A stretch of 64,000 bases of DNA, from NCBI GenBank assembly GCA_932294295.1, contig OW028574.1, forward strand, positions 28,714,145 to 28,778,144, given 5' to 3'. Positions 23,440-64,000 of this stretch are shown here, in pieces (positions within the stretch are counted from its first letter, which is position 1; every line of letters begins with the position of its first letter). Made by a program: the position numbers and the translations under genes. This DNA comes from Alitta virens (lineage: Eukaryota > Annelida > Polychaeta > Phyllodocida > Nereididae). The notes under the pieces were generated by a model. The model was not told the DNA's origin, did not search any database, and saw only the letters and a list, made by a program, of their open reading frames with translations.

Positions 23440-25167
23440 ATGGGTGGAGGAAAGCACACTACAGTCACAGCTGAGTTGCCTACTTCTTCTCCTGACTTGC
23501 TCACAACCTGACCGATAGACGGTAGCTAAGTCAACTGATTACTGTCTGAAAACCGCTCGAACCCCCTTAATTTCTGCCCTCCTGGCCATTATAAATGAAA
23601 CCTTAAACCTGCATCCTATGGGGTACTGGGCAGGGCCAATCAGGTGTGGTTGCCAAGTAGGCCAAAGCCTCAGCCTGTCCAGCCACCTGCCTCTGAACCA
23701 ATGGGCCGAATCCAGGGTATGTCCTATGCAAAAATGAGGAGCTGCCAGATTGATTGACAGAGCCGACTTGCCATATATGGTAAGCTTGGGTTGCCTGATC
23801 TACATATCGATTCAGAACCCCAATCATCTCTCACGTGACTTGGTGCCTGGTCAGTTTATGATCCCTACGGTTGAACAGTCCCAGCACCCATGAGTCACTG
23901 TGGCTTGTCCTTTCGTGATCTCATCTGTCAGCTCCATTACCAGATTACCCAACTCGGATCCCCATAGTTTGCAATAAAGTTTCCAATTTGTGCCATAAAA
24001 CTCCAATTTTTATTGTACCTCTCTCTTATTCAGTTGCCCATTTTCCTGTGATTGTATAGCAGGGCACCATGCGCTTCGTCGGACTTCATTAGTTGATTGA
24101 CTTTTCATGTGCCTTTGTTTGCTGTGAGATATGCTCTTTATTTTCCATGCCAAAATCTGGTATCTTATTTCACACATCTAATGCTTTTACTCTTTTACTT
24201 ACTAACCCTATCTTTTCGATCCCAATTGTTCCCTGGCGATTTTGTCTATCTGTGTGAGCCTACCTGTCATCTTGACTTACAATCTTGTTCTTTCCCTGTC
24301 AGTTTCTAGTCTATCAACCCTATCTATACATAATTGTACATAATACTATTGTACACAGTATCTGAGTAACTCTTGCTTGAGTGTAGTGTCTCTTTTCATC
24401 ATATTCAGCCAGTGTTCATTTCGTGTTGATGACAGATTGGCTTGGTTCTATGTAGGTCAAGTTGGGGTCATGTTGATGTACTTTCTGCTCTTCTCACCAG
24501 GTGGTGCTGTATGTAGGTCATGTTGGGGGTCATCTTTAAATAGGTCAAGTTGGATCTCTTTCCCTTCTATATGGGTCAGTTGAGGTCAGCTCTGTCACTT
24601 CTCACTAGGTGGTGCTGATGGTTATTGTTCCTCAATGTTGGTTGGCTGGGAACTGCCTAAGCGTAAACGCAATAGGTAGGTCGGTGCTGTCCATCTCCCA
24701 TGGCTGATTGGCCAAGCACTGAATTTTCTGATTGGCTGTGCTATTTTTAGACTGGGGAACACGTTCCGGTCCAGGCATTTTCAATGTTAAAGCCTAGGAT
24801 GCGCACGCACGCTACCGGGAGGAATCCCTCCTGGCTAATGGCAGCCCCTACCTCATACTGCGTCAGCTATTCGCAGCGGGCCAGCGAACAATGTTGGCTG
24901 CTGCTGCTGCTCCATGGCATGCTCATCATTGATTTTTCCATGTCCATGGCATTCATTCCTGTCTATCTCCCCAGGTGGTTCTGGTGCTGTGTACTGTAGT
25001 TGTCCTCTGCCTCTTTTTATACTCAATCTCACATCAATTATTACTCAGAGTTACCTTAAATACTTGTACCATAGTTCTTTTGAAAGTGTACTCAGGTTAT
25101 TGGCTTTCTCATTCATCACTATACCTTGGCATGGCCACTTACATTGCAACCTGCAAGCCACATGACA
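23440..25167 (-). mobile_element. Solo or partial LTR, same family as the LTR at 52.8-54.4 kb
   Basis: It matches 52818-54356 in direct orientation. Shared landmarks are the gagttgcctacttct start, accgatagacggtagctaag, gcaataaagtttc, an AGGTCA-rich stretch near 24450-24590, and the end ccacatgaca at 25167. Read on the minus strand it starts TGTCATGTGG, as an LTR should. About 250 bp (24640-24893), with CCAAT motifs and GC-rich sequence, are absent from the other copy. A fragment of this extra segment recurs at 27022-27067. I could not find a target duplication. Confidence 0.65.
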
Positions 25168-35343: not shown

Positions 35344-35423
<80 letters not shown>

Positions 35424-35750: not shown

Positions 35751-35802
<52 letters not shown>

Positions 35803-39310: not shown

Positions 39311-39540
39311 AAGGGGAACAGACAGGAAGCACCAGCCTCTTTGTAAACCCCGATAGTATAGATAGATCCAATAATGATGAAATATGTTTTAATGTTGTAC
39401 CTTGTATTAGCCAAGTAGATGCCATAGATAGTTTTCAAAATGTCAAATCACAAAATTCATCCTTTCATGCCACCTCACCAATCGACACAGCTCATACTCA
39501 GTCACCAAATCATCTTGTTTCAAACCCAGAACTATCATTC

Positions 39541-42420: not shown

Positions 42421-42509
42421 TAGATACTATAACACAAGATCTACAACCACACAGTCAACAGACAACTGACTCAACTGACCATATAACTGAGACACACACA
42501 CGTGCACCA

Positions 42510-44372: not shown

Positions 44373-45426
44373 CAAAAGCAGTTTGTATATTAGTTGTATA
44401 TAGTCCTAGATTTATGTATTATTATTGTTATTGCTAGATACAGGCGAAGGCCATATGTTGTCCAGTGAGGACACATATCAATGCCTTCAAATGTTAGGAA
44501 TTTCTATGTTTTATAATTTACTGATTGGCCATATGGCAGTCTATGGTAAGACTACATATCATGCCAATACAGTCCACGTTTTGTATGGATCTAAACTGGT
44601 GCAAAAGTTTACTTATGTCATATTACTGGTATATTACCAAGTCATAGCGCAACCTTCCTTGCGCTATTCAAAATATAAATAAGGAATTTATAGGGCCACT
44701 AGCCAGGCGCTATCCAAAACAAATTTTAGGCATTTTAAATAGGGCTTTTCCTAGCGCTATGCAAAAATAAAAGAGGACCATGTTAATAATACAAGCGCTG
44801 TCCCTAGCGTTGCAACATTAATGTTATGAAATAAGGGTTAGTGGTAAGTTTCCAGCCACTACAAATAATTAAAATGGAATATTTTGGCGCATTCACCCTG
44901 ACGCCACTTACATAAAGTATTTAATCAGGGTTTTAGAATGTTTCAAATAAACATCAACCGTCAAAGACGGGATGCATTCACATGTATCAAACTACAATGC
45001 CAATTAGAAGATACAACTTGCATGGCAAGATACTTCTAAGGGCCACATTCTGTTCAATACAATGACAGAGCACAATGCCGTGTCAATAGACGTGCAAAAG
45101 CCACTGTCAATTGACGGCCACGTGTAATTTACACACACGGAACAAAGCAACAAAGCCACTTTGTCTGTTGTGTAAACAGATGCCATCCGCATCTTTGAAC
45201 CAATTTGTAACTTATTCAATGGCATTCCCTAAACAGGAATCCTCAATTACAATTATCGCTCATTACATCCCATCCCATTCTTTCATCTCATTTACCTCAT
45301 TGTGCATTTCAAGCCTTTATGTCACAGATAGTACCAGCAGGGTGATTGTCACCTCACATATAATCCAATTACCAAACAACCACCCAAATGTTAATACCTA
45401 ATTTTCCAATTAGGGCTACATGAAAG

Positions 45427-45600
45427 GGGGTACAAACGTCACTATGACGTAACAATACAGCGACACATGCGCAAACCACCCAGCATCTGATTGGTAGAGG
45501 ACACAGACGCATGCGCAGTCCGGCACATACGGGCACTTCAGGACCCTTTTAAAAAGAGCCCTCAAACCTGGAATTAGGCAGTTCTCTGTAGGACATCACA
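45427..45600 (+). promoter_or_regulatory. Putative internal promoter of env
   Basis: Seen in order: a CRE-like tgacgtaa (45445-45452), acatgcgca (45465-45473), a CCAAT box in reverse (gattgg, 45489-45494), an NRF-1-like gcatgcgcag (45509-45518), and a TATA-like ttttaaaaag (45547-45556). An initiator-like ggcagttc has its CA at 45579-45580, about 32 nt after the TATA start. The env ATG is at 45622. The spacing fits a core promoter; activity is inferred. Confidence 0.55.
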
Positions 45601-45621
45601 ACCTTCTGATCCACCGTCAGC

Positions 45622-47655: not shown

Positions 47656-47709
47656 CCAGCATGTGCATCTCTACATTCCAATACACAACTGGAATCTTTA
47701 CAAACAGAT

Positions 47710-48300
47710 TTGTATATGTGTTTGTACTCCAACGACACATTCATGCACATAAAAATCACAACCCTCCCATACGATCTACAGGCGATTACTTGCATACGCA
47801 ACGTCCGTATTTCGCAATTCCAGACAGTATGGAGGGGACTTTGTGGATTTGTGGCAGTAAATTGGGGTGCCCTAGACCTAGCAACTGATACCGCCCGCAT
47901 ATCACCTTCAGCGGAAACCAGACTTCAGTGGGCCCATTATGCCTCATGCAAGAAATTGTGTAGGGAAGCCCACACAGCCAAAGTTGTCTTGTTGCAGGCC
48001 AACAATGCCTGGACCATTAGTAACTGGTCCAAATTGAAGACCCCAAGAAGCGGTCTACCACTCCCGACATACCGTACGCGCCGCCTGTCGGAATCAGCGG
48101 CGGGATCGCCCTTGATGCCACCGGCCACTGACGGATTAGAGCCAAACAGGGTCCGCTGGCAAGCACCAACGCCATCAACATCGGCAACACTCCCGACAAC
48201 GTCTGTCGAGGCAACATCAGCCTCAAACATCTCAGACGATGAAGAACTACACACGCCCCCCACAGGATTGAACGTTGTAAAACTTATAGTCCAACCATAA
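47710..48300 (+). CDS. Env-tail ORF in frame with env beyond a TAG, 196 aa
   Basis: It is in exactly the same frame as env; only the TAG at 47653-47655 separates them, and no other stop lies between 47656 and 47710. The first half (HIKITTLPYDLQ, WRGLCGFVAVNWGALDL, LQWAHYASCKKLCREAH) aligns without long gaps to the C-terminal part of the 57066-58007 ORF of the other retroelement. The second half is Ser/Thr/Pro-rich. It may be translated by readthrough, by re-initiation, or not at all. I recognise no known family. Confidence 0.6.
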   Translation: MYMCLYSNDTFMHIKITTLPYDLQAITCIRNVRISQFQTVWRGLCGFVAVNWGALDLATDTARISPSAETRLQWAHYASCKKLCREAHTAKVVLLQANNAWTISNWSKLKTPRSGLPLPTYRTRRLSESAAGSPLMPPATDGLEPNRVRWQAPTPSTSATLPTTSVEATSASNISDDEELHTPPTGLNVVKLIVQP

Positions 48301-49441
48301 CATGGAAAGATTGACAATTTTAACTCATAAAGGAACAGTTTTTCTATTATATGAGGACATATTTAGGTAGTAGTAATATATATATATAATGTAGAAATAA
48401 GTTATATCTCTTGTACATGTCACCATGAAATGTCATTTTTGTGCTCCCATGAAAAACAATGGGATAGTGATACCTTGTGATCACAAATTTCTTAGAGCTA
48501 TGCTCACAAATGCGATCTACCAAGAAATTTTATAAGTATTGTCAGCTACAGTCACGACTGTTTTACTTTCCACCACAGAAAGACAAATATGAACGTGTTT
48601 GATATTTATTTGGATTATTCACAATTTATGCAACGAGAAAAAGTTTAGTAAACTAAGAATAATAAAAACAAACTATCTAGTAACTCAAAACCATAAATTT
48701 TCAGGTGTTGTTTTGTTCTTTATCCATGTTGAGTGTACAACTTTGCAACTTGTTCCTAAATTCAAACAGTTGGCTTCTAAAATTGTTCGATGATTTAAAA
48801 TAACATTTGATAAGTTTTAATGGTAATTGATAACTATCTCACTGTTTCTGGAAAGTACTGTGCTCGATCAGTCTCAAAACCCAGATAATTGCTTACTAAT
48901 GCTAGATGCCTAGCCAGTTCTTTTTACAAAGCTAGAAAGACAACAGACAGGCGAGCCCAGCTGAGCCGAAGGAAGGAGTACCCAAGCTGCACCCAGATGA
49001 CATCCACTTCCACCTAGACAGGAAGTAGTCCCAGGAATTCAGAACATCAATTCCACTACAACAGGGCAGCATATCCAGTACCAACCAGGCCATCGCACCC
49101 GCTACAACAGGGCAGCGTATCCAGTACCAACAGGACTCCAGGTATCCAGTACAAACAGGACTCCATGTATCCAGTACAATCAGGACAACATACCAAGGAC
49201 AACGAGGGGTTAATAATTCCCCATGAAAATCAGCAAAACCTCAACAGAAACAAGCACCGAAACTACATCCCTCTACTAGACTAACAACTGATAAAAACAT
49301 CGAAAAGATGATACCAATGAACAATACTGTTACAGAATATAACGAAACCTCAATCAAAGACAATATAAGAAATTACTTGTTCATTTAAAATTATAGTATT
49401 TTATATTCTCTAAAGTAATTTCTTCTACCCTATAAGGGGCA
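48301..49441 (+). other. 3' non-coding region of the plus-strand retroelement, with minisatellite and purine tract
   Basis: There is no gene. Tandem units of about 25 bp around tatccagtaca and caggactcc occupy 49066-49205. The end reads cctataaggggca, a short polypurine tract immediately before the 3' LTR at 49442. Confidence 0.75.
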
Positions 49442-49784
49442 TGTTATGTAATCATATCATAGAGTATATCAGTACATAGATATCTCTATATATATATATG
49501 TGTCTTTAGTTCATATATCTATGGAATCCCTTTGTTTGGGATCCATCCTTTGTGTTGGCCTCCAGCTGCTCTAGCTGGAGCTCATTTATTATTAATAGGC
49601 TTGGGCCATCTGCAGCCCTGCCATGACCAACTCCTTTGTTAGATCCAGTTGGATCCTGTTTGATTATGTAACCACCACTATATATACTGGGAATCCTAGC
49701 CATAGGATTCATATTGTATCCAGCTCCTGACTTGATTAAAAGGCTTCATCTTCATCACACTGCTGACTTCATCCTTATTCTATA
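49442..49784 (+). repeat. 3' LTR of the plus-strand retroelement, 343 bp
   Basis: It starts TGTTATGTAATC and ends atccttattctata, followed by the TTAT duplication (49785-49788). It is identical to the 5' LTR except for a 2-bp gt expansion. The 68-aa ORF inside it is not a gene. Confidence 0.93.
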
Positions 49785-49788
49785 TTAT

Positions 49789-52700
49789 GTCACGGAGCTG
49801 ATTTGACCTTTTAATGGCTTAAAAGATAGATGAAACAATTGCGGATTCAATGAGGTATGCTGAATGTTGCCGATCGTTGGTATAAAGTCGTCAGATTGTG
49901 CTGAACGGCTGAACGATTTCTTCTACCAAGAAAAGATAGGAAGGAAATTGGACTGTGTTATTGGACTAGGCGCCATCGAGTGTTAATTATATTTTATTAT
50001 AAACAAAAAAATATCGTAGCTACATACCATCAAATTTTCTTTATTGTGGAAAGTGGTAATTATTGTAATTATATCATTGCTCTGTATATTACGATCTAAT
50101 TAGTCATAAATAATATAAACATAAATATATAAATACATTTGTGATGACATTACAGACAAATTTAGATAGGGTGGTCAAACCAAATTTTCAATTTTGTCAT
50201 TTTATTACGGGAAGTAGCTCATCTAATAGAGCTTAAGAGGAGCTTTCTAAATCTGTTTTATTTATGAAAATATTTTAATTATTGGCGAAGTTATGGGCAT
50301 TTAAAAGCCTAAAAAAAGGCCATAATTCTGCGTCCTCTGCGCGCCTTCAGTCAGATGTTCTGAAGAAGCCTGTTTAAAGGGCTCTAAAATAAGAAATATG
50401 CAGTATATCTTTATTATTTAAGAGACATTCAAAAGCAACATAGTTCTTTATGACAATGTAGTTAAAAGATTTTAAACTGATCTTATTAATATTTTACAAA
50501 GCTTCAAAAGTGCTTCTTCGGAGCGTTTTATTTGACGCGTATACATCACGCAGGTGTTTCCCAGATAGGCCTACACAAGGTTTGAAACTATATTTCGCAA
50601 AAAGTATAATTATGGTAACATTCATAGTCATTATTTTTCAAATACCCAATGATTACTACTTGAAAAGGTTAAATAATGTTGGAAATACAGTTTTTCCCCA
50701 AAAATATAGTGTATTGAACATGGCTGCAGAGCCCAATTTGGTAAATTCACAAAAATCGACGCGTTTTTGAGTTACCAAAAGGAAAATCCCATTTATGAAC
50801 TCCATTTTCAAGCAATATATACATATAATACATAATTTGAAAACTTATTTCAAGTGTAATACAATAAGATAACTTGCTATAATTATTTTCTAGTAATTAA
50901 TTCTATAGTAGGTATTCAATGCAGTAACTACTGTCATGTAAAAACATGCCCAAGTAAAAGCTTCTGCTTGTAGTGCAAAAATAATATATTGCTGTCTATA
51001 TTTTTTTTAAAGGTGTGGAAAATGGTGCAAAATGACAGTATGAATGCTTAAACTTTACTGCTGTCTCTGGATTGTACAATTGTTTACAGTTCAAAAATGA
51101 TTAACAGCCTCTTTTGTCGATTATCTCAAGTCAGTATCATGTACAATAAATTGCTAAAAATCAACAATTTTGTTACAATTCTGAAATGTACCATATTGCA
51201 ATTGTCCAAAAAATTACTTGACCAAATTTTTTAATTGATACTATAAAAAAGAAACCTTTATTTTAAATTCTTGTATTTTGGTATTAATAGTAATAATGAT
51301 GTGTAACTAAAATAAATTAATAGTATCATTTGCACCGGTATCTGGAGTGTCAACTCAGCTAAATCTGGGGGATCTAGCAAATTAACTCGCGCTGTGAGAA
51401 ACTTTAATAAAAGTCTAATAAAACCATGAAAAATATTCACAATATTTTCCTCAGCACTGCCTTCGACTTGGTATCATATATTAAATGATTGACCACTATA
51501 ACTAGCTCAATATACTGCTAGGTTATTGATAAACTAAATATTAATTTAACAGCCTAACTGCCATGCAACATTAGCTGTCAAACTCAACTCTCATTTATTA
51601 TTTCTGTCCAAAGTTAGTGGAACTATATTTACTGTTCCTCCTCCAATTATCTCTATATACTCTTATGAAGGATATACCTCCCTTCAATATTCACTAGCTT
51701 ACTGGTGCGCACTCAGCAGCTAATCAGTACTTCATAATACTGACCAAAAAATGGAATTATGTTTACTATTCCACTTTTTGGTTCTCTGAATATCTTAAAG
51801 GGATGTACTTCCCAATCTTATCTCCTGGCCCACTGGTCAATACTCAGTGGCCTTTCAGTATACTTCTATGCAAGGATAACTAAGAATTGGTGTAAGATTT
51901 TGGAAATATATTCTGAGAGAATTTACAACAAATAGTAATCTCAAAGGCTTAATTCACACATAATTCACATCAATTTACACAATTATTCAGGTCTCAAGGA
52001 AATCTTTATACTTTCTGGATAATGGTTACTTAACCATTCTACTTCCGAAAGCACAGGCTGACTGTCATTTCACTCAGTACACTCTCAGCCTTTCTCAATA
52101 ATTATCCCTGATTCGACTATACCTGACTTCTACTTTTGCTGAATACACACAAATATATATATATTAAGGGAATACACTTTTCCCACACAAATAATTACAG
52201 CATCTATCTAGCACTTGACCTTTAATTACTGCTCTTAGATCAAGTCAAATTATACTCTTTAATCTTCGCTAAGTTTCGCTATTGATAAATTACACGCACA
52301 TTCTTGATATGATAATTAGTCCAGCAATTAATAACACTTAGCTAGTTTGACTGATCAGGTCCCTATACTCAGTATTCTCAATCTAACTGCTGATCACATA
52401 CATATCATATGTTAACACTTAAAGATAGCACTTAAACATGGACATATCTGTCCTGAGCTCACATATAATTCACACACATAAATACAATGCAATGGCCAAC
52501 AATCAAATCCCCTCCCAATAATTCACTCATAAATCTTATACAGCTGCACTCTATCTGTCCACTAGTCAGATCAGTGTGGTCTTCTATTCTCAAACCACTC
52601 TGTTTCTACTTCTTCTGCTTCAGCAATATGGTCAATTCTAACTCAACTTATTCTTAATATGGTCTAATCAGTTAACCACTCTACTACTACTGCTCCTTCT

Positions 52701-52817
52701 TCTACTATTGTATAGTGTTTGGGTTCAGTGCTTTCACTCCCACTTCTTTCTACTTCTTCTACTACTTCGATTGTACAATATATCTTAACTCCACTTACTG
52801 TCTTAATTCCTGAAAAA
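49789..52817. other. AT-rich non-coding stretch
   Basis: No gene or clear repeat is seen. From about 51560 the sequence becomes pyrimidine-rich with cttctactactt runs, and may be an extension of the adjacent LTR. I could not find a second copy to prove it. Confidence 0.5.
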
Positions 52818-54356
52818 TGCACACTTCAGTCACCACTGAGTTGCCTACTTCTGCTCCTGACTTGCTCACAACCTGACCGATAGACGGTAGCTAAGTCAAC
52901 TGATTACTTTCTGAAAACCGCTCGAACTCCTTAATTTCGGCCCTGCTGGCCATTATAAATGAACCCTTAAACATGCATCCTATGGGGTGCTGGGCAGAGC
53001 CAATCATGGGCAGTTGCCTGGCAGGCCAAAACCTCCCTCAGACCGGCCACCTGTCCCTGAGCCAATGACCCAAGGCTGGAGTATGTCCCTTGCAAAAAGT
53101 GATGAGGTAGCAGATTGATTGACAGGGCTGATTTGCCATATATGGTACGCTTGGGTTGCCTAATTTATGTATTGATTTGGAACCCTTATCCCCCCACGTG
53201 ACTTGGTGCCTGGTTACTTTTATGATCTCTGTAATTGATCAGTCCCAGTGCATATGAGTCACCATGGCTTGTACTTGCGTGATCTCATCAGCCTGATCCA
53301 TTACCCAACTTGGATCCCCATAGTTTGCAATAAAGTTTCAATCTCGTGCAATAAAGCCCCAATTTTTATTGTACCTTTCCTTTAGTCTGCTGCCCATTTT
53401 CCTGTAATTTTATAGCAGGGTACCCGGGTGCTTCGTCCGACTGCATCAGCTAATTGGCGTTTTATGTGCCTTTGTTTGCTGTGAGATATGTTCTTTAGTT
53501 TCCATGCCAAAATCTGGTATCTTATTTCATACATCTAAGCTTATTTTTGTACTTGCTAAATCTCCCTTTTTGATCCCATTTGTCTCACTCTGTTTTGGCT
53601 TAATCTATCTGTGTGAGCATACCTGTCATATTGACTTACAATCTTGTTCATTACCTGTCAATTTTAGTCTAATCATGCTTGTTTACATAATCATACATGC
53701 TTAGTCATGATACTATTGTTCACTTGTGTCTGAGTAACCTTGGCTTGAGTATTGCAGTCTCTTGTCATCATATTCAGCCAGTGTTCATTTTGGGGTTGAT
53801 GACAGGTTGAAATCATCTTAGCTTGGTTCTTTGTAGGTCAGGTTGAGGTCATGTTGATATACTTCCTGCTCTTCTTACCAGGTGGTGCTGTATGTAGGTC
53901 ATGTTGGGGTCATGTTGAAACATGTCAAGTTGAGGTCATGTTGATGTCTTTCCCTTCTATATGGGTTAGTTGAGGTCAGTCTAAAGTAGGTCAAGTTGAG
54001 GTCATGTTGAGTACAGCTTCATTGCTTCCACTAGGTGGTGCTGATGTTATCGTCCCTCAAGGTTGGTTGAAGTTGGTTGCTGCTGCTGCTCTATGGCCTG
54101 TCATCATGTCTCTGGTTTTCATTTCCGTCTTTCTCCCCAGGTGGCTATGGTGTCAGCTGTTGCTGCCCTCTGGTGCTGCATGCTGCAGTTGTCTTCTTCC
54201 TCTTTTCATACTCAACCCCATACAATTGATTACTCAGCACTACCTTCAATTCTTGTACTATGATTCTCTTGACAGTATACTTAGGCTATTGTTCCCATCA
54301 TCCATCATTATACCTCTACATGGTCACTTATATTGCAGTCTACAATCCACATGACA
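52818..54356 (-). repeat. Probable 3' LTR of the minus-strand element
   Basis: It shares about 1.5 kb with 23440-25167. On the minus strand it begins TGTCATGTGGATTG directly after the purine tract GGGAGTAAGGGGGA (54370-54357). The far end is uncertain and could extend to about 51560. The 66-, 63- and 116-aa ORFs inside are not conserved as proteins. Confidence 0.65.
53835..54004 (+). promoter_or_regulatory. Cluster of AGGTCA nuclear-receptor half-sites in the LTR
   Basis: Seven AGGTCA hexamers, all in the same orientation, start at 53835, 53846, 53896, 53933, 53973, 53988 and 53999, plus a GGGTCA near 53907. The 23.4-25.2 kb copy has about four in the equivalent place. AGGTCA is the canonical half-site of many nuclear receptors; function here is inferred. 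Confidence 0.5.
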
Positions 54357-55052
54357 TCCCCCTTACTCCCAAAAAAATTTTGTGTTTGCCACTTAAATGG
54401 CAGACACAAATATTTTAGCAGCAATTTGGTCTGTGTACTAAACCTCATGGGTGAATGGAAGCAGCGTGCCCCCCCCCCCCCCCCGTAAGGTATCGTCACT
54501 TGCTAGGGGGCCCTGAGGTGCTCAGAAGCTGGCCTCTCTTAGTCTGCTTGTATGCGTCCATTAGTTAGTTACCAGGACGCACTCTGGGCGCGCTGTGGTC
54601 GGCTTGTTGGGAGGCTTGCTAGGGGAATTCCACGTGTTGGTATGTGTGCCGGCTGTGACCTGAGACCGATAGACCGCAGGTTAATAGTAGCGGGTCTCAA
54701 ATTGTTTATAATATTCCCCCCCCCCTACTTCCGTATCTCTTAAGTTATATTTTAGTTATGGGTAGGTTGAGCTCATGTGGGAGAAACAGGGGTGCACAGT
54801 GTTAACGTATGTAATTTACAATATGATATGCCCTACGTCAGGAAGAATTATACGTGATGTACCTCGAGAACACTGAAAGCGCGTGTTTTGTCTATGATTA
54901 TTGCATATTTGAAGCGAGCCGATAGTAGAGTGGTATTTAGTCTGGGTATTCAAGGCACCTCCCCCCCCCCTTTTTCGTAATGTGTCTGGGGCTGACCTTT
55001 CACCACATTGGCGTATGGTGAAGTGCCACTCCGATACAAGGACTTGTAGATC

Positions 55053-56292
55053 ATGGCAGCTTTCATTTTTTGTGCCATCTTAATTCAGGCGTTTTTGACA
55101 AATTGCAAAGGTGAGTCACTTATTTGTACTTTAAATTTTTCTTAGTGTGTGATTTTGGCTGATTGAATTTCGGTGGGTGGGTGTGTTCAGCTTGCAAATG
55201 ACGTGTGTAATTCCCACACGTGTTTGCAGGCGGCACCATATGTTTTGATGCTACACTGGTAGTTTCATCCTTATATTTTAAGAATTCCTGAAATATAACA
55301 ATTTGCAATTAAAATACAGGCTTTGACTGCGTCTCTGATGATGAGACTGGCGCTTGCAGTGCTGGTTCAGAAGGTGTCTGCTACGTAAGTATGTTCTACA
55401 TACCTAGGACTTCTCATGGCCTATGTAGCAATCTTATTTTTAGTCTTTTGGAGGTCGAAATGATTATACACGACCCATTCGTTAAAATATTTTGGATATT
55501 CTTTATTACGCCATAATGATGCGTGTTAGTTAATTTACTAGTCTATGTTATTCACTATTACCAGTCTGGGCTGGCCGTCTCGGTAGCGCACAATGTCGTG
55601 CCATGCGCTCGAGAGGTACACCCTCATGGGCCATTCATCGGGGTGGCTGATTGACCGGGCCTCCCTGCAAAATAGGGAAGCAAATGACCAAACATCCGAT
55701 CCATCTACCACTGTACCCCAGTTGCTGAGGTCGGTATTATGCCCTTGGACCATCTTGTAATTTTCGGCCGACCCCTTTTCTTGAGAATCCTGGATCCGCC
55801 TCTGGATATTGAAAAAATGAAATGAGTTATTTTAATTCTAGTTACAGAAATATATATATCACCGTCACCAGGTTATTTTCTTGTTCATAATTTCCACGTG
55901 GTCATCTTTTATACTTTCATTAGTTAAAATTGGTTAATCATTTATTTAATTTTTAGGTCGCCACGCTGGAGACAACTCGTGGCACCCAATCTTTTTCGGG
56001 TTGCGCCGCCAGGTGCCCCCTCTTGGAGAAAGTCAGGGTCACGTGCTGTGACCACTCGTTTTGTAACGGAGCTAGCATCAAGATGGCCAACTGCGACAGT
56101 CTCTTTGTTTTAGCCATATTGGCTATTATTTTGATCATGAGAGAGCGGCCTTGGCTTGGGGCCCTGCTGGCTGTGCTTCTGTGTGTTCTGAGGAATTTCC
56201 CGCCTCTCCGCCTGCTGGCTGAGCCGCGGTTTCACCTCTGGTGGGTTGGCGCTTTCCCTGAGGATTTGCTCCCCCGAGTGGCGGTTTGGTGA
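55053..56292 (+). CDS. Ly6/uPAR (three-finger) domain membrane protein, 152 aa, three exons
   Basis: Exons 55053-55110, 55320-55384 and 55957-56292 join in phase with GT-AG borders. The signal peptide is MAAFIFCAILIQAFL. The Ly6 domain has about ten cysteines (CKGFDC, GAC, GVC, SGCAARC) and ends with the family hallmark CCDHSFCN. A hydrophobic segment follows (SLFVLAILAIILIM), then RERPW and a second hydrophobic stretch (GALLAVLLCVL), so the protein may be membrane-spanning rather than GPI-anchored. A strong donor at 56289 with an acceptor at 56462 gives nearly the same C-terminus. Three C-runs (54472, 54715, 54960) lie upstream. It is antisense to the retroelement, between its Env-tail ORF and its 3' LTR. 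Confidence 0.72.
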
Positions 56293-57065
56293 GTAATTAA
56301 TCATTATTGGCTCATTTGATGTTGAATTAATCTGTGAATTTTTGGTTCTTGGGCCTATCTTAGCTGATAAGCGTTCTGATTTATATATGTCGTAGTGACT
56401 GTCAGGTGATCTCATATTTGTACCGTTCTGGCACTAATTGGTGATAACCTTTTAAATTTCAGATTAGTTATCCAGCGAGTTTGACTATGGTGACGTGAAC
56501 TGGCCTTTATGACGGTGGATTTCTTCGCAGAGTTTGATATCTGAAAGGCTGGATATGATGGTGGCCATGTCAGTTTGACTGAATAGATGTATATATCCAA
56601 GGAATTTTCATAGACTCTATTTTGCTAGTTGCTACTTCGCAGGTTACTGTTATGTAACCCTAGGTGACCGTGTGACCTCCTACTGTGCCAATGCAGGGGG
56701 GTTTCATTAGTTACCCCCTGCTGACCTGCTATTGTGATCACCATCTGGCCTTTACTGGATAATCTGTATGCGAGACACTCGGCTATTCATGACCTTAAAG
56801 AAAAATTTGTTATGTACATAATTTAATCAGATTGCGATCATGTACTGTCAAATATTATTCATTGTCATAAAATGCATGCACATATGTATATTTTTTGCAC
56901 TGTGTGATTAATTAATGTCTTGTAAATATGTTCTATATACTTGTTATTGATCTCATGACGCCTTACAGGCTGATATAAAGTTAATTTTCTTAAATAGGTT
57001 GTCCTTATTTTTTCTTCATTCATAACTACCTGTTGTCCTGGTTTCATTAACAATTTATATTAACC
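56293..57065. other. Non-coding segment between convergent Ly6-like and Env-tail genes
   Basis: No ORF is convincing. It includes tgttatgtaaccc at 56648 and ggtttcattaaca at 57049, which could mimic LTR ends on the minus strand, but no purine tract precedes them. An inverted pair gggggtttcattagttaccccc lies at about 56696-56717. Confidence 0.5.
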
Positions 57066-58007
57066 TCATAGTTCGAATTGGGCCAGGCTGGGCGGTGCGC
57101 TTTGACTTACTGAGCTTGGTAACTGGTGACATATGTCGTAGTCATCGAGGAGCATCGCTGTCACTCGGTGCTGCTGGCGCGAAATTTGCCTTAGTTTGTT
57201 CATGTCACGCCAGGATATCGTGGTTGTGTCTGGGAGTGGCATGTGCATCTTATCGCACCTTAATGATGCGTGGCCAGTTGTACTGAGGGTGAACCCGAGG
57301 GTACCTGTAAATGTGGTCCCCCTAATGCTGACTATTGCTGGGTTTAGGTGGCCGACGAATTCCACTTGGTGAGCTAGTGTGTGTATCCTGGCAATTGGGA
57401 TCACCACGCGTTCATTCGCTGAGTTGATGATGAGTAGCACCGTGAGTCTGGGGTGTTTTGCTCTGCACTCATTTGGCAAAGACATCAACCGTGGCCTCGA
57501 TGTTGCCCTGGCCAGCTTCTTCATTAATTTGTAAATTGCGATTAGTGATAATGCAATTATTAATGTGGCTGCTGCTTGCCATAACACGTCGTCGGTTTGC
57601 AGTGTTCTGCAAACTTGGGCAGGTGACGCATAAGACTCTTGGAATTGGCCCCCCAAAACGCCAGCTGTCACTAAGTTAGAGGTCTTGGCATGTTTATATG
57701 CCGTCCAGGCTGCGAGTATGCATCCACAGGTACCCACAATTGACAGGGTGAAGGATAGGGCAAGTGGCCAAGCCTGGTTCGAGAACAATTTGTCTAAATT
57801 GTCGAAGGATGCTGTGTCCATTGTCTCTGGTTTCATTCCCTCTACTAGGCTTTTTAGCTCAATTTCGAACTGATCTAATGGCGAGTCGTGGATAGCTGCG
57901 TCTTGTATACTTAGGTGTTGCATGTCAGTTGTACCTGCATCCTTCATTATCTGGCTCAATATCTTCCCTTCCCATGCTGCCATGATGCTATCATTTCCCC
58001 CTAACAT
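57066..58007 (-). CDS. Env membrane-anchor and cytoplasmic-tail ORF, 313 aa
   Basis: Its ATG overlaps the end of the Env ectodomain ORF by 7 nt (ATGTTAG, 58007-58001). Residues 1-78 look like a stem. Membrane segments are at about 80-104 (PLALSFTLSIVGTCGCILAA) and 141-160 (VLWQAAATLIIALSLIAIYK), then a basic stretch (KKLARATSRPR) and a globular tail. The stem, two membrane segments and tail reproduce the C-terminal layout of the plus-strand env and its post-TAG ORF. The Env is therefore divided between two frames, coupled by overlap or frameshift. Confidence 0.75.
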   Translation of the reverse strand: MLGGNDSIMAAWEGKILSQIMKDAGTTDMQHLSIQDAAIHDSPLDQFEIELKSLVEGMKPETMDTASFDNLDKLFSNQAWPLALSFTLSIVGTCGCILAAWTAYKHAKTSNLVTAGVLGGQFQESYASPAQVCRTLQTDDVLWQAAATLIIALSLIAIYKLMKKLARATSRPRLMSLPNECRAKHPRLTVLLIINSANERVVIPIARIHTLAHQVEFVGHLNPAIVSIRGTTFTGTLGFTLSTTGHASLRCDKMHMPLPDTTTISWRDMNKLRQISRQQHRVTAMLLDDYDICHQLPSSVSQSAPPSLAQFEL

Positions 58008-59611
58008 GTGTGCTCAATGTTTTGTACTATCAAGTCTGTGAGGGGATTATCAATTGGCCTTATTCTGACCGATGCTGTAGTCATATTGCAGAGCGGCCCC
58101 TTGACATGGAACTCGTGGTCCACCAAGACACAATTACATATTGAATCTTTATCAATCACAGCTGCTTTCTGGCTGTCTATGTACATGGGTATATCCTGGC
58201 CAGTGCACCATAATTGGATCTTCTTTGAGAAGCCATAAACCATGATTGCATGTTTGGTCTCAATAATTTCTGGCATTGTAAATTGAGCCTGGTATATCTT
58301 GAACTCGCAGTCAACGTGTGACTGTCTGTCCATTTTTCTGGACCATATTTTCTCGAAACATGTTTTGTTCCTTCTTTCTACCACTGGCAGTGACGCTGGA
58401 CATACTGTAATCTGCGGGTCCGCGTAGATAGTGTGGCACAACGCCAATTGTGCAGGATTGACTGGCATCATGTAGTTTTTGGAGATTCCCATGTGTTTGA
58501 CTGATGGGTTCCATTTGCTGGACAGTGTGCTGTTAGGACCCAGTGGCACTGGTACCGTTTTTATCCTTATTAGTGTCATTGCTTTTTCCGTGGTTTTTAT
58601 GACCTCCACTGGTATTTGCACCACTAGCCCATCATGGCTGATGGCTATGGCTGACCGGCTGAAAGCGTATATGTCCTCGGCTTGGGTCAACACCAGGTCA
58701 TGGTCTGGGTGCCATTCCTTGAGGTCTTCGCGTGCTTGGGTGAATGCCTGTGACAGTGCTACATAGGGTAGGATACGGTGTCTTACCACGCCGCCCCTTG
58801 CGTCTCGAACGCCTTCTATAGTCTCGCGTAGTATTCCCGCCACTGTGGGCATGTCATGGAGGGTGGCCATTCCCAGTTCGGTCTGGATTTGGTTCAGCTT
58901 TGACAGCACTGATATGGTGTCTGTCTTTGCGTCCATGGTGTCTGCGAAAGCCTCAAGCACGTTCTTTAGTGTGTCTAAATTCTTCTGTGTACCTGTCAGG
59001 TCCTGTCTCAATTGCCTTACCATGCCCTCGGTGTACTGCTGCTGTCTGAGGTTTAGTGCCACGTAGTGGGCGAAATTCCCTTTAACCGATTGCAGGTCCT
59101 CATGTAGTCGTAGGTGCTGGTCTTTCAGGATCTTCAACCCCTTCTTCATATCCTCATTCCTTTTGTAGCTGAGGAATTGGTTGATTCCTTGTCCTACTAG
59201 CCAACTAGCCCCGGATGCTATTAGTGCCCAGGGAAATCGCCTCGCCCGGTGCTGCCTGTCTGCTGTACTTACATGCTGCAATATCAACTCGTTTTTGAGC
59301 CCTCTAATTTCTTTTCTCCACATATCATATCTGTCTACCATTGCTGCAATGGACGGTAGCTGTTGTCTACATACCTGTCGAATGAATTCGTTTGACGCCT
59401 GGTGGCATGTCATGTTTAGTGCCGGGGGGATTGCCATTGCGGGCCAATCATAATCATCAAATTTTATCAGAAAATTAAGAGTGAGAACCTGAGGGCTCAA
59501 GTGTATAATTCCCTGGCCCTCGAGGATCGTCCCGTACTCGGGTATCATCATTTGCTCTGGTTGAGCCCATACTAGTGTGCCTATGTACAATACTACAACT
59601 ACGATGAACAT
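58001..59611 (-). CDS. env: Env-like glycoprotein ectodomain, 536 aa, lacking its own anchor
   Basis: The signal peptide is MFIVVVVLYIGTLVWA. A furin-type site RARR at residues 122-125 is followed by a hydrophobic Gly/Ala segment (FPWALIASGASWLVGQG) and a heptad region to about 240. A Cys-rich second half follows (MTCH, CHTIYADPQITVC, CFEKIW, CNCVLVDHEF, CNMTT). Placement of site and coiled coil matches the plus-strand Env. There is no membrane segment before the stop at 58001, so alone it would be secreted. It begins 35 nt after the LRR gene stop. Confidence 0.8.
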   Translation of the reverse strand: MFIVVVVLYIGTLVWAQPEQMMIPEYGTILEGQGIIHLSPQVLTLNFLIKFDDYDWPAMAIPPALNMTCHQASNEFIRQVCRQQLPSIAAMVDRYDMWRKEIRGLKNELILQHVSTADRQHRARRFPWALIASGASWLVGQGINQFLSYKRNEDMKKGLKILKDQHLRLHEDLQSVKGNFAHYVALNLRQQQYTEGMVRQLRQDLTGTQKNLDTLKNVLEAFADTMDAKTDTISVLSKLNQIQTELGMATLHDMPTVAGILRETIEGVRDARGGVVRHRILPYVALSQAFTQAREDLKEWHPDHDLVLTQAEDIYAFSRSAIAISHDGLVVQIPVEVIKTTEKAMTLIRIKTVPVPLGPNSTLSSKWNPSVKHMGISKNYMMPVNPAQLALCHTIYADPQITVCPASLPVVERRNKTCFEKIWSRKMDRQSHVDCEFKIYQAQFTMPEIIETKHAIMVYGFSKKIQLWCTGQDIPMYIDSQKAAVIDKDSICNCVLVDHEFHVKGPLCNMTTASVRIRPIDNPLTDLIVQNIEHTC

Positions 59612-59646
59612 ACTTACTTAGCTATCTGGCACAGTCTCCCTATCGA

Positions 59647-61371
59647 TCAGAAATCAAACAGATCCCACACACTTTCCGTGTCCTCCTTATCTGAAGAAAG
59701 TAAAGAAATATTGGATTTGAGTGAGTTTACTTGAGTGGTGGTGGTGTCATTAACGTCATCTCCCTGTCTCGGTTCAATTGGTTTGCATCCCTCACAGCCT
59801 GTCATGTTGACCCATACGCCAATTTTCCACAATTTACAGATCATTATTTCATTACACTCTAATCTGTTTCTATCAATGCTAATTGTGGAATTTGGGGCCA
59901 GTTGGGACTGTGCCAGTGGAACCCAAGTGTCTATCTTGTTATTTTGTACTTGTGCTTTGAGTGCCACGTTGGACAAGTCTTTGGTGAATTCTAAATTCAC
60001 CAGTTGATTCTGCTGTATATCCATTATTAATGATGCTGGAGATGAGTTAAATTCAATCTGCATGATATAGTTATTCTGCACCATTAGCTCTATCCGTTCG
60101 TTGTTTGGCAGTGATATCGACAGCTGTGCTATCTTGTTGTGTGCTAAGTCTATTAAGCTAAGGTTGTGGCTCCTTGCCAGGTCTATATTCACTCTGTATA
60201 ACATGTTATTGTTTAGCCTGATTTGTTTTAACGCCCTCAAGTCATATTCGCCAAGGTCATTGACCTGGTTCAGGTGGCTGTGCGATACTTCTAGCTTCTG
60301 CAGATAGATGGTGTTAACCTGTTCTAAGATTACCAATTGTTGAAAGCAGGATCCCTTGATGGCCACGTCTTTTACTCCCATCTTTATGCCTGACTGGTTT
60401 CCAGCGTTTGGGACCACGGCATGACCATATGTTAGGAATGACTCCAATCTTAGTGTCCCTCCCATGTACATGGTCTCTGCCCCACACCGTGCTAGGGTTG
60501 GGTTAGCGCTAGGGTCCATTGACCTTCCCAATTGTACATTTCTTACAAATAAGCCGTCGCCCAATATGTCTGGGGGCAATGCCTGCGCCGAGCGGAGGCT
60601 TAGCTTATCCACTACACATCTCATTGTCTTGTGTGTGCATAGAATTTGCGATAGTGATGGTTTGTCTCCCCACGCGTTCACCTTAATCCTCACGGTCCTG
60701 AAATCAGGACTTGTGAGAAATATTGGGCCTTCGATGTGTATTAGCCGCGGTACTCGCAGTGTAAGGAATCTTATCTTATCACATGATCCCAACATGTATT
60801 TGTTAATAGATGTCAATGCGGTGGCTTCAATGTCCAGGCTCTCAATTGTGCAGTGCCCTTGGAACAGTTGGTGCCTCACCTGCTGTACATGAGGCGCCAC
60901 TATGGCTACCCATTGTACGCCGCTAAAGTGTCTTAGGCTTGACAATGCGGCCTGCTTTGTTTTGACAGCTATTTGCTTTAAGCAACTTACCAGTGATTCT
61001 GGAAGCAGGGCCATATCGTCGACATAGACTCCTATCAGGTGCTGCAGTTCAGTGATAATCGTATTTGTTGCCACCAGGTTTTTAATCAACCTCCAGTTCA
61101 TGAAGAGCGTGTTCACCTTACCGTATCTACTCAGGACATTGCTGATGGACACGTTCGCTTGGCCATTGGTGACTGTCATGCTCAAGTGCGTCACCATTGA
61201 TTCATAACTCGCCTCTCCAGGTTGCATCGGGTACACTTGCGTTGCTCTCAGCACCGGCCTGGCCATGAACTTTTTCTTACATCTAATCTCCTGATTTAGG
61301 GATCCGGTGATCATCACGCTCATTAGAAGGGCAATCCATAACCTGCCTTTGTTCACTGTCACTGTCGCCAT
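59647..61371 (-). CDS. Secreted leucine-rich-repeat protein carried between pol and env, 574 aa
   Basis: The N-terminal hydrophobic signal is LWIALLMSVMITGS. Leucine-spaced segments run through residues about 180-500, clearest at LKQIRLNNNMLYRVNIDL, LSLIDLAHNKIAQLSISL and ALKAQVQNNKID. A Cys-rich cap at about 503-529 (NRLECNEIMICKLW...MTGCEGC) resembles an LRRCT. An acidic, Ser/Thr-rich tail without a membrane segment follows. N-glycosylation sequons are frequent. The context is 35 nt ahead of env and 247 nt after pol. It has no counterpart in the plus-strand element. LRR proteins usually bind proteins; capture of a host Toll/Slit-like ectodomain, or a receptor-binding partner of Env, is inference. 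Confidence 0.7.
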   Translation of the reverse strand: MATVTVNKGRLWIALLMSVMITGSLNQEIRCKKKFMARPVLRATQVYPMQPGEASYESMVTHLSMTVTNGQANVSISNVLSRYGKVNTLFMNWRLIKNLVATNTIITELQHLIGVYVDDMALLPESLVSCLKQIAVKTKQAALSSLRHFSGVQWVAIVAPHVQQVRHQLFQGHCTIESLDIEATALTSINKYMLGSCDKIRFLTLRVPRLIHIEGPIFLTSPDFRTVRIKVNAWGDKPSLSQILCTHKTMRCVVDKLSLRSAQALPPDILGDGLFVRNVQLGRSMDPSANPTLARCGAETMYMGGTLRLESFLTYGHAVVPNAGNQSGIKMGVKDVAIKGSCFQQLVILEQVNTIYLQKLEVSHSHLNQVNDLGEYDLRALKQIRLNNNMLYRVNIDLARSHNLSLIDLAHNKIAQLSISLPNNERIELMVQNNYIMQIEFNSSPASLIMDIQQNQLVNLEFTKDLSNVALKAQVQNNKIDTWVPLAQSQLAPNSTISIDRNRLECNEIMICKLWKIGVWVNMTGCEGCKPIEPRQGDDVNDTTTTQVNSLKSNISLLSSDKEDTESVWDLFDF

Positions 61372-61617
61372 CTTGATGTTGCCTGACTAAATATCGCATG
61401 CGCTCGCTACAGTCTATTGTCATGCTAGTGCATGCGAGGTGGCTTGCTTGGCTTGTTGTCCTACTCGCGACCTGGTGGCTCCCTCTATTGTGTGTTACCT
61501 TCGCTATCTATTTGCACCTAGTCTACCTAATTATACCAATTCTCCCAGCTTAGTTGGTGCTATACATGTATTATGCTAACCTAAATATCTACCTACTCTA
61601 ACTCAATGGTCAATTGT
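61372..61617 (-). promoter_or_regulatory. Spacer upstream of the LRR gene with NRF-1-like motifs
   Basis: Just ahead of the LRR start the minus strand carries two gcatgc-type sites (near 61402 and 61430), the first as gcgcatgcga, then a TATA-like atatttag. The ATG sits in an aagatggcgac context. These resemble motifs upstream of the plus-strand env. Promoter function is inferred. Confidence 0.35.
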
Positions 61618-63375
61618 TCACCTGTCGGCATTCCGCGTTGCCTGAGGCACTGTGTTCAGTGCCTCTAATAACTGCCATATGGTCTCTGCAAAATTGTCTC
61701 GTACCCGCACCTTTGCCACCTTCACACGTCTCAAGTGTATTGGCTGAGTGACCAACTCGTTTTTCAGGGTACTCACCACAATGAATTGGTCCGGCAGTAC
61801 TCTGGTGCACACGAATGGGCCTATATAGTAGAATGAGATCTTTCTACTTAGGAACAGCTTTGACTTGTATTGTGGGGCCCAGATATAACAGAACTGTCCT
61901 TCTACCAATGTCACCGTCTTGGCTGATTTGTTCCTAATTCTTTGGGCACTCATTAGCCTCGGAGCCTGCTTATGGGATGCGACTGCTGTACGCAGTTCAT
62001 CAATCCTCTTGCGTATTCCAGCTATGTAATCATCATAGCTAGTTGGTGCGTCTCCTAATGGCTGTATGTCTACTTCCCTGAGGTCAGTACGATAATTATG
62101 TTTCCTGCCAAAGAAAAGCTCGAATGGGGTCATGCCCTCGGCTGAGGTCATGGTATTTGTGGCCCATACTGCGAAGTGCACCCCATCGACCCAATTCTGC
62201 TCTCTATTTTCCGCGGTGAGGGTGATCAGTCTTTGTTGGATTGAACCTATTGCTCTTAATGCGATTATGCGCTCAGACTCTGAACTCACCTCCTCACCTG
62301 GTGCTATTTGAGACAATACACATCCGATTCCCTCATGCGATGAGTCCACCCGCAGGATGTAATTGTATCCACTGATGGGGACTCTCAGTACCTCGGGGCT
62401 GGCCAGTAGGTCTTTGATGGCTTCGAAAGCAGTCTGGGCGGCGTCACTCCACTGAAACTTAACTTTGTTCCTGGTCAGTTCGTACATTGGCCCGGCCAGT
62501 GTTTGGAAATCAGGTAAGTGGGCCGCTAAGAATGTTGCGAATCCCAGGAATTTTCGCACGCCCTTGCGTGACGTAGGTACTTGTAATTTGGCTGCTGCTT
62601 TGATCTTACTTTCGGGGACTTCCACCTTCAGCCCATTTTCCTCTATGACGTAATTGAAACCCAAGATGGTGGTGCTGTTTGCTGACCACTGTGTTTTCTG
62701 GAGGTTCAGCCGTAGTCCTCGGGTTCTCAGCCGGAACAGCACCTCGTCGAGCGCACTGATGTGACTGTCAAATGTCTCGGTGAAAACGTATACATCGTCC
62801 GCATAGAAGGCCACGTTCTCCCCGTGTTTCAAGTCCTGCATAACCTGGGACAGGGCTTCACTCCACAGGGATAGGCTCGGTTTGGCGCCCATCGGTATTC
62901 TCGAGAGGCGAAAGGACTGTGAAAGTGAATAGAAGGATAGGCCGTATAGTTCCTTGCTTGCTTCATCCAGTTCTATGGAATAGAACGCCTGGGAGATGTC
63001 TAATGCTGTTATAAATTTCACGTTAACCAGACACGCCAACTTGGTGTGCAGTTCTGGTCTAGTGAGCAGAGGGTGGTGCTTGGATTCAGACATTGAATTT
63101 ATTTTCCTTCCATCCAAAATTAACCTGACTTTGTTGGTGTTTGGCTTCTCTCTGACAAATACTGGGGAATAGCAAATCGCCTTTCCCTGCTCCACGATGT
63201 CGTGTAGCATGAGTTTTCTGACTTCACTGTTCATGGCCTTGATGAGCGAGGACGACACTGGGTAAGGCCTCAGTATGAAGGGCCAGAAGTCTGGTGTCAC
63301 CTCGACCTTAGCTTTGTAGCCTGTGAGGCGCCCCACCTCGTCGTAGCAGGCGAACGCCTGAGCGTGGCTGTGCAC
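61618..63375 (-). CDS. pol: Pol: reverse transcriptase with internally deleted RNase H-integrase
   Basis: The frame is open upstream to about 63500, so 63375 (a GTG) is not a real start. RT motifs are VRLILDGRKIN, ITALDISQAFYSIEL, SRIPMGAKPSLSLW and YADDVYVF. RNase H begins (ILRVDSSHEGIGC) but after RIIAL, near 62250-62275, the frame passes directly into the end of an integrase core (VDGVHFAVWATN, MTPFELFFGRKH). The GPY/F-like module (FYYIGPFVCTRV) follows. The HHCC domain and DDE triad are missing, as is most of RNase H, yet the frame is kept. This copy cannot encode its own integration functions as it stands. Confidence 0.88.
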   Translation of the reverse strand: MHSHAQAFACYDEVGRLTGYKAKVEVTPDFWPFILRPYPVSSSLIKAMNSEVRKLMLHDIVEQGKAICYSPVFVREKPNTNKVRLILDGRKINSMSESKHHPLLTRPELHTKLACLVNVKFITALDISQAFYSIELDEASKELYGLSFYSLSQSFRLSRIPMGAKPSLSLWSEALSQVMQDLKHGENVAFYADDVYVFTETFDSHISALDEVLFRLRTRGLRLNLQKTQWSANSTTILGFNYVIEENGLKVEVPESKIKAAAKLQVPTSRKGVRKFLGFATFLAAHLPDFQTLAGPMYELTRNKVKFQWSDAAQTAFEAIKDLLASPEVLRVPISGYNYILRVDSSHEGIGCVLSQIAPGEEVSSESERIIALRAIGSIQQRLITLTAENREQNWVDGVHFAVWATNTMTSAEGMTPFELFFGRKHNYRTDLREVDIQPLGDAPTSYDDYIAGIRKRIDELRTAVASHKQAPRLMSAQRIRNKSAKTVTLVEGQFCYIWAPQYKSKLFLSRKISFYYIGPFVCTRVLPDQFIVVSTLKNELVTQPIHLRRVKVAKVRVRDNFAETIWQLLEALNTVPQATRNADR

Positions 63376-63998
63376 CAGAACCCTAATCCTTTCCCTCTGT
63401 TCCTCGTTGAGTCGTGAGTCTGTGAATTGCTGCTCATCACTCGTGTGAGGGAGCCTCTTACTTGTGAGACTACCACCCCTCGTTCTCCATGGTCCATGTG
63501 GCAGGAATTCACAGCCACTATTGCGTAGACTGGGCGGTACACCACCACCTGCCTCTGTCCCACATTGATTACTGCCCCCAGGTGCGACATGATGTCATTC
63601 CCCATCAACACCAGGTCCTGTGTCATTTGTGTTGCTACATGTACTGGGATGCTTAAGATCACACCTTCTGGTGTTGTTATTCTTACCCTGATGGCGTCCT
63701 TGGATTGCAATTCACCATCGTTCCCTGCAAAGAAAGTTATTGGAGTTATTGGTTCCCTTTTCAGCATGGACAAGTAGGGGCTGGTGGACACAGTGTGTTC
63801 TGACATTAATGTCTTAATGGCCCCCGTGTCAAAGATCACTCTTATCTTCTGCATGCTGTCCCCAATAGAGCACACCACGTCATTCATGGCCCCCAAGTTA
63901 ATGCAAATTTCTTGGCTTAAATCTATGGGGTGCTCAGTGATTTCTTTTACGGCCACTCTTTCATCAAATTTCACATTTTTATTGCTTTGTTTCTTCAT
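63297..63998 (-). CDS. pro: Retroviral-type aspartic protease, N-terminal part beyond window
   Basis: The catalytic motif is RVIFDTGAIKTLM, followed by FFAGNDGE and the hydrophobic LVLMGNDIM loop typical of Ty3/gypsy proteases. The frame is open at the window edge, so the true start, and Gag, lie to the right. It overlaps the RT frame, which is in the -1 register relative to it. The last 50 or so residues in this frame (after HMDHGERG) look like out-of-frame translation of the RT linker. Whether this is a programmed shift or a lesion is unclear. Confidence 0.8.
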   Translation of the reverse strand: MKKQSNKNVKFDERVAVKEITEHPIDLSQEICINLGAMNDVVCSIGDSMQKIRVIFDTGAIKTLMSEHTVSTSPYLSMLKREPITPITFFAGNDGELQSKDAIRVRITTPEGVILSIPVHVATQMTQDLVLMGNDIMSHLGAVINVGQRQVVVYRPVYAIVAVNSCHMDHGERGVVVSQVRGSLTRVMSSNSQTHDSTRNRGKGLGFWCTATLRRSPATTRWGASQATKLRSR

Positions 63999-64000
63999 GG

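What the first reader, a model, noticed from the sequence alone, without database searches (positions are those of the whole stretch)
59647..61371. A retroelement carries a secreted LRR protein gene between pol and env
Ty3/gypsy elements with env normally run gag-pol-env. Here a 574-aa signal-peptide LRR protein with a cysteine cap sits in sense orientation, 35 nt ahead of env. It has no stop codons, unlike the damaged pol, which suggests selection or recent capture. It could be a receptor-binding subunit working with Env or a decoy of host innate LRR receptors. Roles are inference; the order and domain signs are seen.
Basis: partly seen in the sequence, partly recalled or inferred. Interest (0 to 1): 0.88.

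Follow-up and report, generated by a model that had tools for sequence, protein, structure and literature searches.

The report
Retroelement with extra extracellular LRR gene
A damaged animal retrovirus-like element carries, between its copying-enzyme gene and its entry-protein gene, an intact extra gene for a leucine-rich-repeat protein that looks made for export, probably a long-held passenger gene that may have helped the element at the cell surface; sister copies, which would settle this, could not be searched.

Summary
An uninterrupted 574-codon ORF (59647-61371, minus strand) lies in sense between a Ty3/gypsy-type pol and an F-like env. LRR identity is significant: Pfam LRR_8 E=3.8e-8; repeat-chain score reached by 0 of 1000 shuffles. 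AlphaFold without an alignment was uninformative. 'Intact unlike pol' is no evidence of selection: counting three lesions in the neighbouring 5 kb leaves a 0.36 chance of none here; env is itself frame-broken before its membrane anchor. 'Recent capture' is disfavoured: third-position T matches this element's other ORFs (p=0.29), not the second element's (p=3e-7). New: a strong predicted splice acceptor inside the LRR gene's 3' end, 79 nt before the env AUG, would give an env mRNA without the LRR ORF. A second F-env element in the window has no LRR gene. Capture between pol and env has precedent (crocodilian KIT-ligand, PMC4299795). I read this as a resident accessory gene for an extracellular LRR protein, perhaps a partner of Env. 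No second copy could be examined.

The parts
59647..61371 (-). LRR gene: 574-aa intact ORF; putative signal peptide at the N-terminus (by eye), LRR-like repeats clearest at residues 333-505, cysteine-containing C-terminal cap by eye
58001..59611 (-). env ectodomain ORF, 536 aa: hydrophobic leader, RARR site at residue 122, a CxC pair and other cysteines much as in element 2 env; no membrane anchor in this frame
   Evidence: called F-like by analogy with element 2 env, which matches Baculo_F; this env itself had no Baculo_F match at E<=1
57066..58007 (-). ORF3, 313 aa, other frame, overlaps the env end by 7 nt; two hydrophobic helices (residues 82-100, 141-159) and a C-terminal domain similar to the ORF after element 2's env stop
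61618..63375 (-). pol remnant: RT (RVT_1 E=1.1e-22), start of RNase H, then the C-terminal part of integrase; RNase H end, zinc finger and integrase core are missing relative to element 2
63297..63998 (-). protease ORF (RVP E=6.5e-4, 20.4 bits, just below the family cut-off of 20.7; similar to element 2 protease, E=3.5e-12), in a different frame from RT
61372..61617 (-). 246-nt gap between pol end and LRR start; four upstream ATGs, no good predicted acceptor
59691..59711 (-). predicted 3' splice site (pyrimidine tract plus CAG), second best of 733 AGs in 54357-64000; first ATG downstream is env's, 79 nt on
52811..54356 (-). 3' LTR (about 1.55 kb, TG...CA; the CA end is placed by eye, the alignment to the lone LTR stops at 52816), preceded by a purine tract
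23442..25167 (-). diverged lone LTR of the same family (aligned 23451-25167; 81% and 71% identical in its two main blocks; no target-site duplication seen by eye)

Best explanation
Shown: an env-bearing Ty3/gypsy-type element has a single-exon, sense-strand LRR gene between pol and env, with the same strand composition and codon bias as the element's own genes. Inferred: the gene was gained as a spliced cDNA (or from another virus) long ago, was carried through many replication cycles, and makes an exported, soluble LRR protein. Env would be made from a spliced RNA whose acceptor lies in the last codons of the LRR gene, so the two proteins come from different RNAs. Most likely role (inference, about 0.35): an extracellular binding protein that helps particles or producing cells engage a cell-surface ligand, alongside an F-like Env whose N-terminal piece is short (about 125 residues before the cleavage site). 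The present copy is a dead or non-autonomous insertion.
For: ORF and order; LRR; T at third position 92 of 574 codons in the LRR gene against 235 of 1667 in this element's other ORFs (p=0.29), 716 of 2731 in element 2 (p=3e-7) and 138 of 448 in four host-like ORFs whose coding status is not proven; codon-usage correlation with RT-IN 0.77, env 0.74, ORF3 0.68, and 0.32-0.72 with element 2 genes; acceptor at 59691: a site that strong anywhere in 7 of 1000 shuffles, and in the 150 nt before env in 0 of 1000; no 19-residue stretch with mean hydropathy above 1.6, hence no predicted anchor; good AUG context (aagATGg). Precedent: KIT-ligand soluble-form ORF between pol and env in CrocERV29 (PMC4299795, passages).
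Against: One copy only, so neither persistence in the family nor selection is shown. No acceptor of note precedes the LRR ATG (best within 630 nt is 4.2, against 12.8 for env's) and four upstream ATGs lie in the gap, so how it would be translated is unclear. My acceptor score also rates a site in 3' noncoding DNA higher (55665, 13.3) and one inside RT fairly high (62917, 9.9). N-glycosylation sequons are not enriched (8; 84 of 500 shuffles reach that). Composition of real host genes of this species is unknown, and gag of element 2 also correlates 0.72 in codon usage. No relative was found in the protein collection (only the 7995 best word-sharing candidates were scored), IMG/VR or GTDB genomes, so the source is unknown; these hold few animal genomes. 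The role is inferred only from fold, export signal and neighbours.
Confidence: 0.5

Rival explanations
1. Passenger capture: a host LRR mRNA was picked up by copy-choice during reverse transcription and has no function for the element; it is open only because the insertion is young or by luck.
For: Intactness is uninformative (probability 0.36 of no lesion if three lesions are counted nearby); a second F-env element has no such gene; no obvious way to express it.
Against: Composition and codon bias match the element's, which suggests long residence, and 574 codons would hardly stay open for that long without selection in the replicating lineage (inference).
Confidence: 0.22
2. Innate-immunity decoy: the secreted LRR protein binds pathogen patterns or host LRR partners and blunts the host response.
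For: Weak similarity to extracellular LRRs of a Toll-like receptor (E=0.16) and the mosquito immune protein APL1B (E=0.045).
Against: These matches are no better than those to unrelated LRR proteins such as LGR4, LRIG1 and CCR4-NOT; they reflect the repeat, not a family.
Confidence: 0.15
3. The LRR protein is the receptor-binding partner of Env (a split SU), that is, attachment and fusion are on two genes as in paramyxoviruses.
For: Adjacent, same strand; env's piece before the cleavage site is short. F-type and mononegavirus-like envs in retroelements are known (PMC5408684; PMC9040795; passages).
Against: Baculovirus-type F proteins need no separate attachment protein (recalled), and element 2 has F-env with no LRR gene. 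No predicted anchor to hold the LRR protein on a particle. The two proteins show no sequence relation (39 of 300 shuffles reach the score).
Confidence: 0.2
4. Host LRR gene lying in the locus, with retroelement pieces inserted around it.
For: Only one copy seen; pol is deleted and env frame-broken.
Against: Same strand and composition as pol and env, single exon, env's predicted acceptor lies inside it, the gaps to pol and env are only 246 and 35 nt, and no repeat of 60 nt or more was found in 48000-64000.
Confidence: 0.06

Closest known systems
CrocERV29 with KIT-ligand ORF between pol and env (PMC4299795, passages)
   Same: An extra gene for a soluble extracellular protein sits between pol and env without loss of an element domain; intact ORF beside damaged element genes
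   Different: Vertebrate retrovirus lineage; cytokine with an obvious host parent; nine copies with the ORF and a selection test. Here an LRR protein, no parent found, one copy, Ty3-type pol and F-like env
Bdelloid rotifer LTR elements with paramyxovirus-F-like env (TelKA) and captured ORF3s (PMC5408684, passages)
   Same: Invertebrate LTR elements with an F-type env, or with captured non-env ORFs
   Different: Captured ORFs there are of GDSL esterase and DEDDy exonuclease type, downstream of pol; 'leucine' does not occur in that text
Insect errantiviruses / iERVs (PMC12992720, passages)
   Same: F-type env with signal peptide, furin site, fusion peptide; env from a spliced subgenomic RNA
   Different: No LRR gene mentioned; 'leucine-rich' and 'accessory' do not occur in that text
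Element 2 in this window, 33212-49777 (+)
   Same: Ty3-type pol (25% identical over 376 columns of RT), F-type env (Baculo_F E=2.9e-6), two hydrophobic helices and a further domain after env
   Different: No LRR gene in its 1.2-kb pol-env gap; different LTRs and composition
Extracellular LRR proteins (LRIG1, LGR4, Toll-like receptor, APL1B)
   Same: Leucine-rich repeats
   Different: Only repeat-level similarity (E 1e-4 to 0.2); N-terminal half irregular

Membership tests
Ty3/gypsy (Metaviridae) | pol with PR, RT, RNase H and integrase in that order | tested here: met
   RVT_1 and RT_RNaseH_2 by Pfam; PR and integrase end by similarity to element 2, whose integrase matches Pfam; the middle of pol is missing in this copy. 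RT tree with all 19 hits gives no resolved place
Ty3/gypsy (Metaviridae) | two LTRs, primer-binding site, gag | not testable with these tools
   The 5' half lies outside the window and the genome search did not complete; 3' LTR and purine tract seen
Baculovirus-F / errantivirus type Env | significant match to the Baculo_F profile | tested here: not met
   No Baculo_F match reported for this env at E<=1, whereas element 2 env matches at 2.9e-6
Baculovirus-F / errantivirus type Env | leader, RxRR site, fusion peptide, coiled coil, cysteine pattern, TM anchor | tested here: inconclusive
   Leader, RARR and a CxC pair met; fusion peptide and coiled coil by eye only; anchor only in another frame; similarity to element 2 env weak (E=1.2; 5 of 300 shuffles; no hit at E<=1 with BLOSUM45)
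Extracellular LRR protein | tandem LRRs | tested here: met
Extracellular LRR protein | LRRNT/LRRCT cysteine caps | tested here: inconclusive
   Four C-terminal cysteines by eye; no LRRCT or LRRNT profile reported (C part)
Extracellular LRR protein | LRR solenoid in a confident structure | tested here: inconclusive
   AlphaFold single-sequence mean pLDDT 33 and 37
Extracellular LRR protein | signal peptide | tested here: inconclusive
   By eye; hydropathy below the cut used; no predictor on hand
Element-resident accessory gene | present in the same place in several copies, dN/dS < 1 | not testable with these tools
   Genome search did not complete (8 attempts); IMG/VR and GTDB gave no copy

The most novel reading that the evidence does not exclude
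A retroelement lineage with a two-gene entry machine: an F-type fusion protein plus a separate LRR attachment protein, analogous to the attachment/fusion pair of paramyxoviruses but built on a leucine-rich-repeat scaffold.
Probability: 0.2. Interest if true: 0.85.

Novelty: new variant of a known kind. Interest (0 to 1): 0.55.

Why it matters
Capture of cellular genes between pol and env is known, but the examples whose passages I read are a cytokine (KIT-ligand), a cell-adhesion protein in place of env (nectin3), and enzyme-like ORFs. An LRR binding protein beside a fusion protein would be a new cargo class. If kept by selection it could show how Ty3-type elements gain cell targeting or evade host recognition when they turn infectious. 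Four literature searches joined retroelement or virus terms with leucine-rich repeat or LRR: 20 of 35 papers listed; 2 of 2; 1 of 1; 5 of 5. None of the listed titles and abstract starts describes such a gene; I opened none of those 28 papers, and the library lacks most subscription papers.

Tried and rejected
Structure: two AlphaFold jobs without alignment (whole protein; residues 340-540) gave mean pLDDT 33 and 37; the strand spacing looked LRR-like but I draw nothing from it and ran no fold search. Homologues: LRR protein, env and pol in the 5.8-billion protein set gave 0, 0 and 19 hits (in only about 8000 candidates sharing most words were scored); the 19 pol hits are 30% identical or less and the tree did not place the element (all 19 used, the tool warned of long branches). 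IMG/VR with four queries and GTDB genomes with one: none. Solved structures with env: nothing of use. NCBIfam: nothing of use. Rfam and tRNA: none. Selection from intactness: rejected. Glycosylation enrichment: not significant. env against LRR protein: no similarity (39 of 300 shuffles reach the score). ORF3 against element 2 env: weak (31 of 300 shuffles for the whole, 4 of 300 for the helix-bearing parts). Literature searches on errantivirus env (no paper held all terms) led to the papers named below.

Papers: PMC6431247, PMC5408684, PMC8220671, PMC4299795, PMC11673190, PMC9040795, PMC12992720 and PMC11952523 were seen as find passages only; PMC12440569 as outline with abstract and passages; all others only as search listings.

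Full report
CHECK. The minus-strand ORF 59647-61371 encodes 574 aa without a stop. The pol remnant ends at 61618 and env begins at 59611, so the gaps are 246 and 35 nt. The chance of such an open frame from base composition is about 2e-15. The other two sense frames hold 63 and 40 stops.

IS IT AN LRR PROTEIN? Pfam LRR_8 matches at E=3.8e-8, above its cut-off. Two parts scanned apart give sub-threshold LRR matches in each (residues 78-330: LRR_5 E=0.004; residues 331-574: LRR_8 E=1.4e-4). The C part matches LRIG1 at E=1.2e-4 and the N part LGR4 at E=1.7e-3. A simple repeat-chain score of my own gives 73.3 against a shuffle mean of 40.6 (sd 5.3), 0 of 1000 shuffles reaching it. The same score for four control proteins of the two elements was reached by 186, 9, 66 and 80 of 300 of their own shuffles; the control with 9 is this element's RT-IN, so the score is not perfectly clean. 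Two AlphaFold runs without alignment were uninformative. The leader peptide is read by eye; no membrane anchor is predicted by simple hydropathy.

THE ELEMENT. Upstream are protease and RT with the start of RNase H. Against the second element in the window, this pol runs from RT and early RNase H straight to the last part of integrase; the rest of RNase H, the zinc finger and the integrase core are absent, and protease and RT lie in different frames. Downstream, the 536-aa env has a leader, an RARR site and a CxC pair among its cysteines much as in the second element's env, which matches Baculo_F. Direct similarity between the two is weak (E=1.2; 5 of 300 shuffles; no hit at E<=1), and this env itself has no Baculo_F match at E<=1, so 'F-like' is an analogy. 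Two hydrophobic helices, which in the second element lie inside env, are here in the next ORF, in another frame (57066-58007); its C-terminal domain resembles the ORF just after the second element's env stop (E=8.7e-4; 1 of 300 shuffles). So env, like pol, seems interrupted in this copy, unless the shift is programmed, which I cannot test. A 1.55-kb 3' LTR lies at 52811-54356 and a diverged lone LTR of the family at 23442-25167 (outer ends by eye). The 5' half of the element is outside the window.

HOW LONG HAS THE GENE BEEN THERE? This element is T-poor on its coding strand. Third-position T is 16.0% in the LRR gene (92 of 574), 14.1% in the element's other four ORFs (235 of 1667; p=0.29), 26.2% in the second element (716 of 2731; p=3e-7) and 30.8% in four host-like ORFs (138 of 448; their coding status is not proven). 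Codon usage correlates best with this element's RT-IN (0.77) and env (0.74), though gag of element 2 reaches 0.72. This favours long residence over recent capture. It does not prove it, since the host's own LRR genes could not be compared.

IS IT UNDER SELECTION? Not shown. Counting three lesions (protease/RT frame change, pol deletion, env frame change) in 5001 nt of the other ORFs, 1.03 would be expected in the LRR gene and none has probability 0.36 (0.50 for two lesions, 0.25 for four).

EXPRESSION. Of 733 AG dinucleotides in 54357-64000, the second-best acceptor-like site (12.8) is at 59691, inside the last codons of the LRR gene; the best (13.3) is at 55665 in noncoding DNA and the third (9.9) inside RT at 62917. 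The first ATG after 59691 is env's, 79 nt on. A site this strong arises anywhere in 7 of 1000 Markov shuffles, and in the 150 nt before env in 0 of 1000. The scoring matrix is my own, from recalled metazoan acceptor composition. [quoted passage not shown] The LRR gene has a good start context but no good acceptor nearby, and four upstream ATGs lie in the gap: how it is translated is the main open point.

COMPARISON. Gene capture between pol and env is known: a review says so in general (PMC6431247, passages) and CrocERV29 carries a KIT-ligand soluble-form ORF there, with codon tests pointing to purifying selection (PMC4299795, passages). LTR elements with F-type env and with captured ORFs are known from rotifers (PMC5408684, passages). 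None of the passages I saw mentions an LRR gene in that place. The second element here shows that an F-env element need not have one.

VERDICT. Real feature, new variant of a known kind: an accessory gene for an extracellular-type LRR protein in an env-bearing Ty3-type element. Role unproven; my best guess is a cell-surface binding aid, possibly an attachment partner of Env. The test that matters, other copies, could not be run: eight genome searches did not complete.

Noticed in passing
33212-49777 (+): A second env-bearing Ty3-type element with 99.4% identical repeats at its ends over 336 columns: gag-position ORF 38249-39307, pol 39292-44369, F-type env 45610-47652 (Baculo_F E=2.9e-6), long leader and a 1.2-kb pol-env gap without a long ORF.
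   Followed up: partly
47656-48297 (+) and 57066-58007 (-): In both elements a similar domain follows the env hydrophobic helices: after an in-frame stop in element 2, in a separate frame in element 1. A shared Env C-terminal domain or downstream gene of unknown role.
   Followed up: partly
9282-10873 and 25194-26861: Inverted pair of a transposon remnant with sub-threshold integrase-core (rva_4) matches, 76-94% identical in its three aligned blocks.
   Followed up: no
54357-57065 (-): 2.7 kb with no ORF over 111 codons between ORF3 and the 3' LTR, holding the best-scoring acceptor-like site of the region (55665).
   Followed up: no
13514-13924 and 26893-26987: 21-bp minisatellite arrays about 13 kb apart, some copies related.
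   Followed up: no
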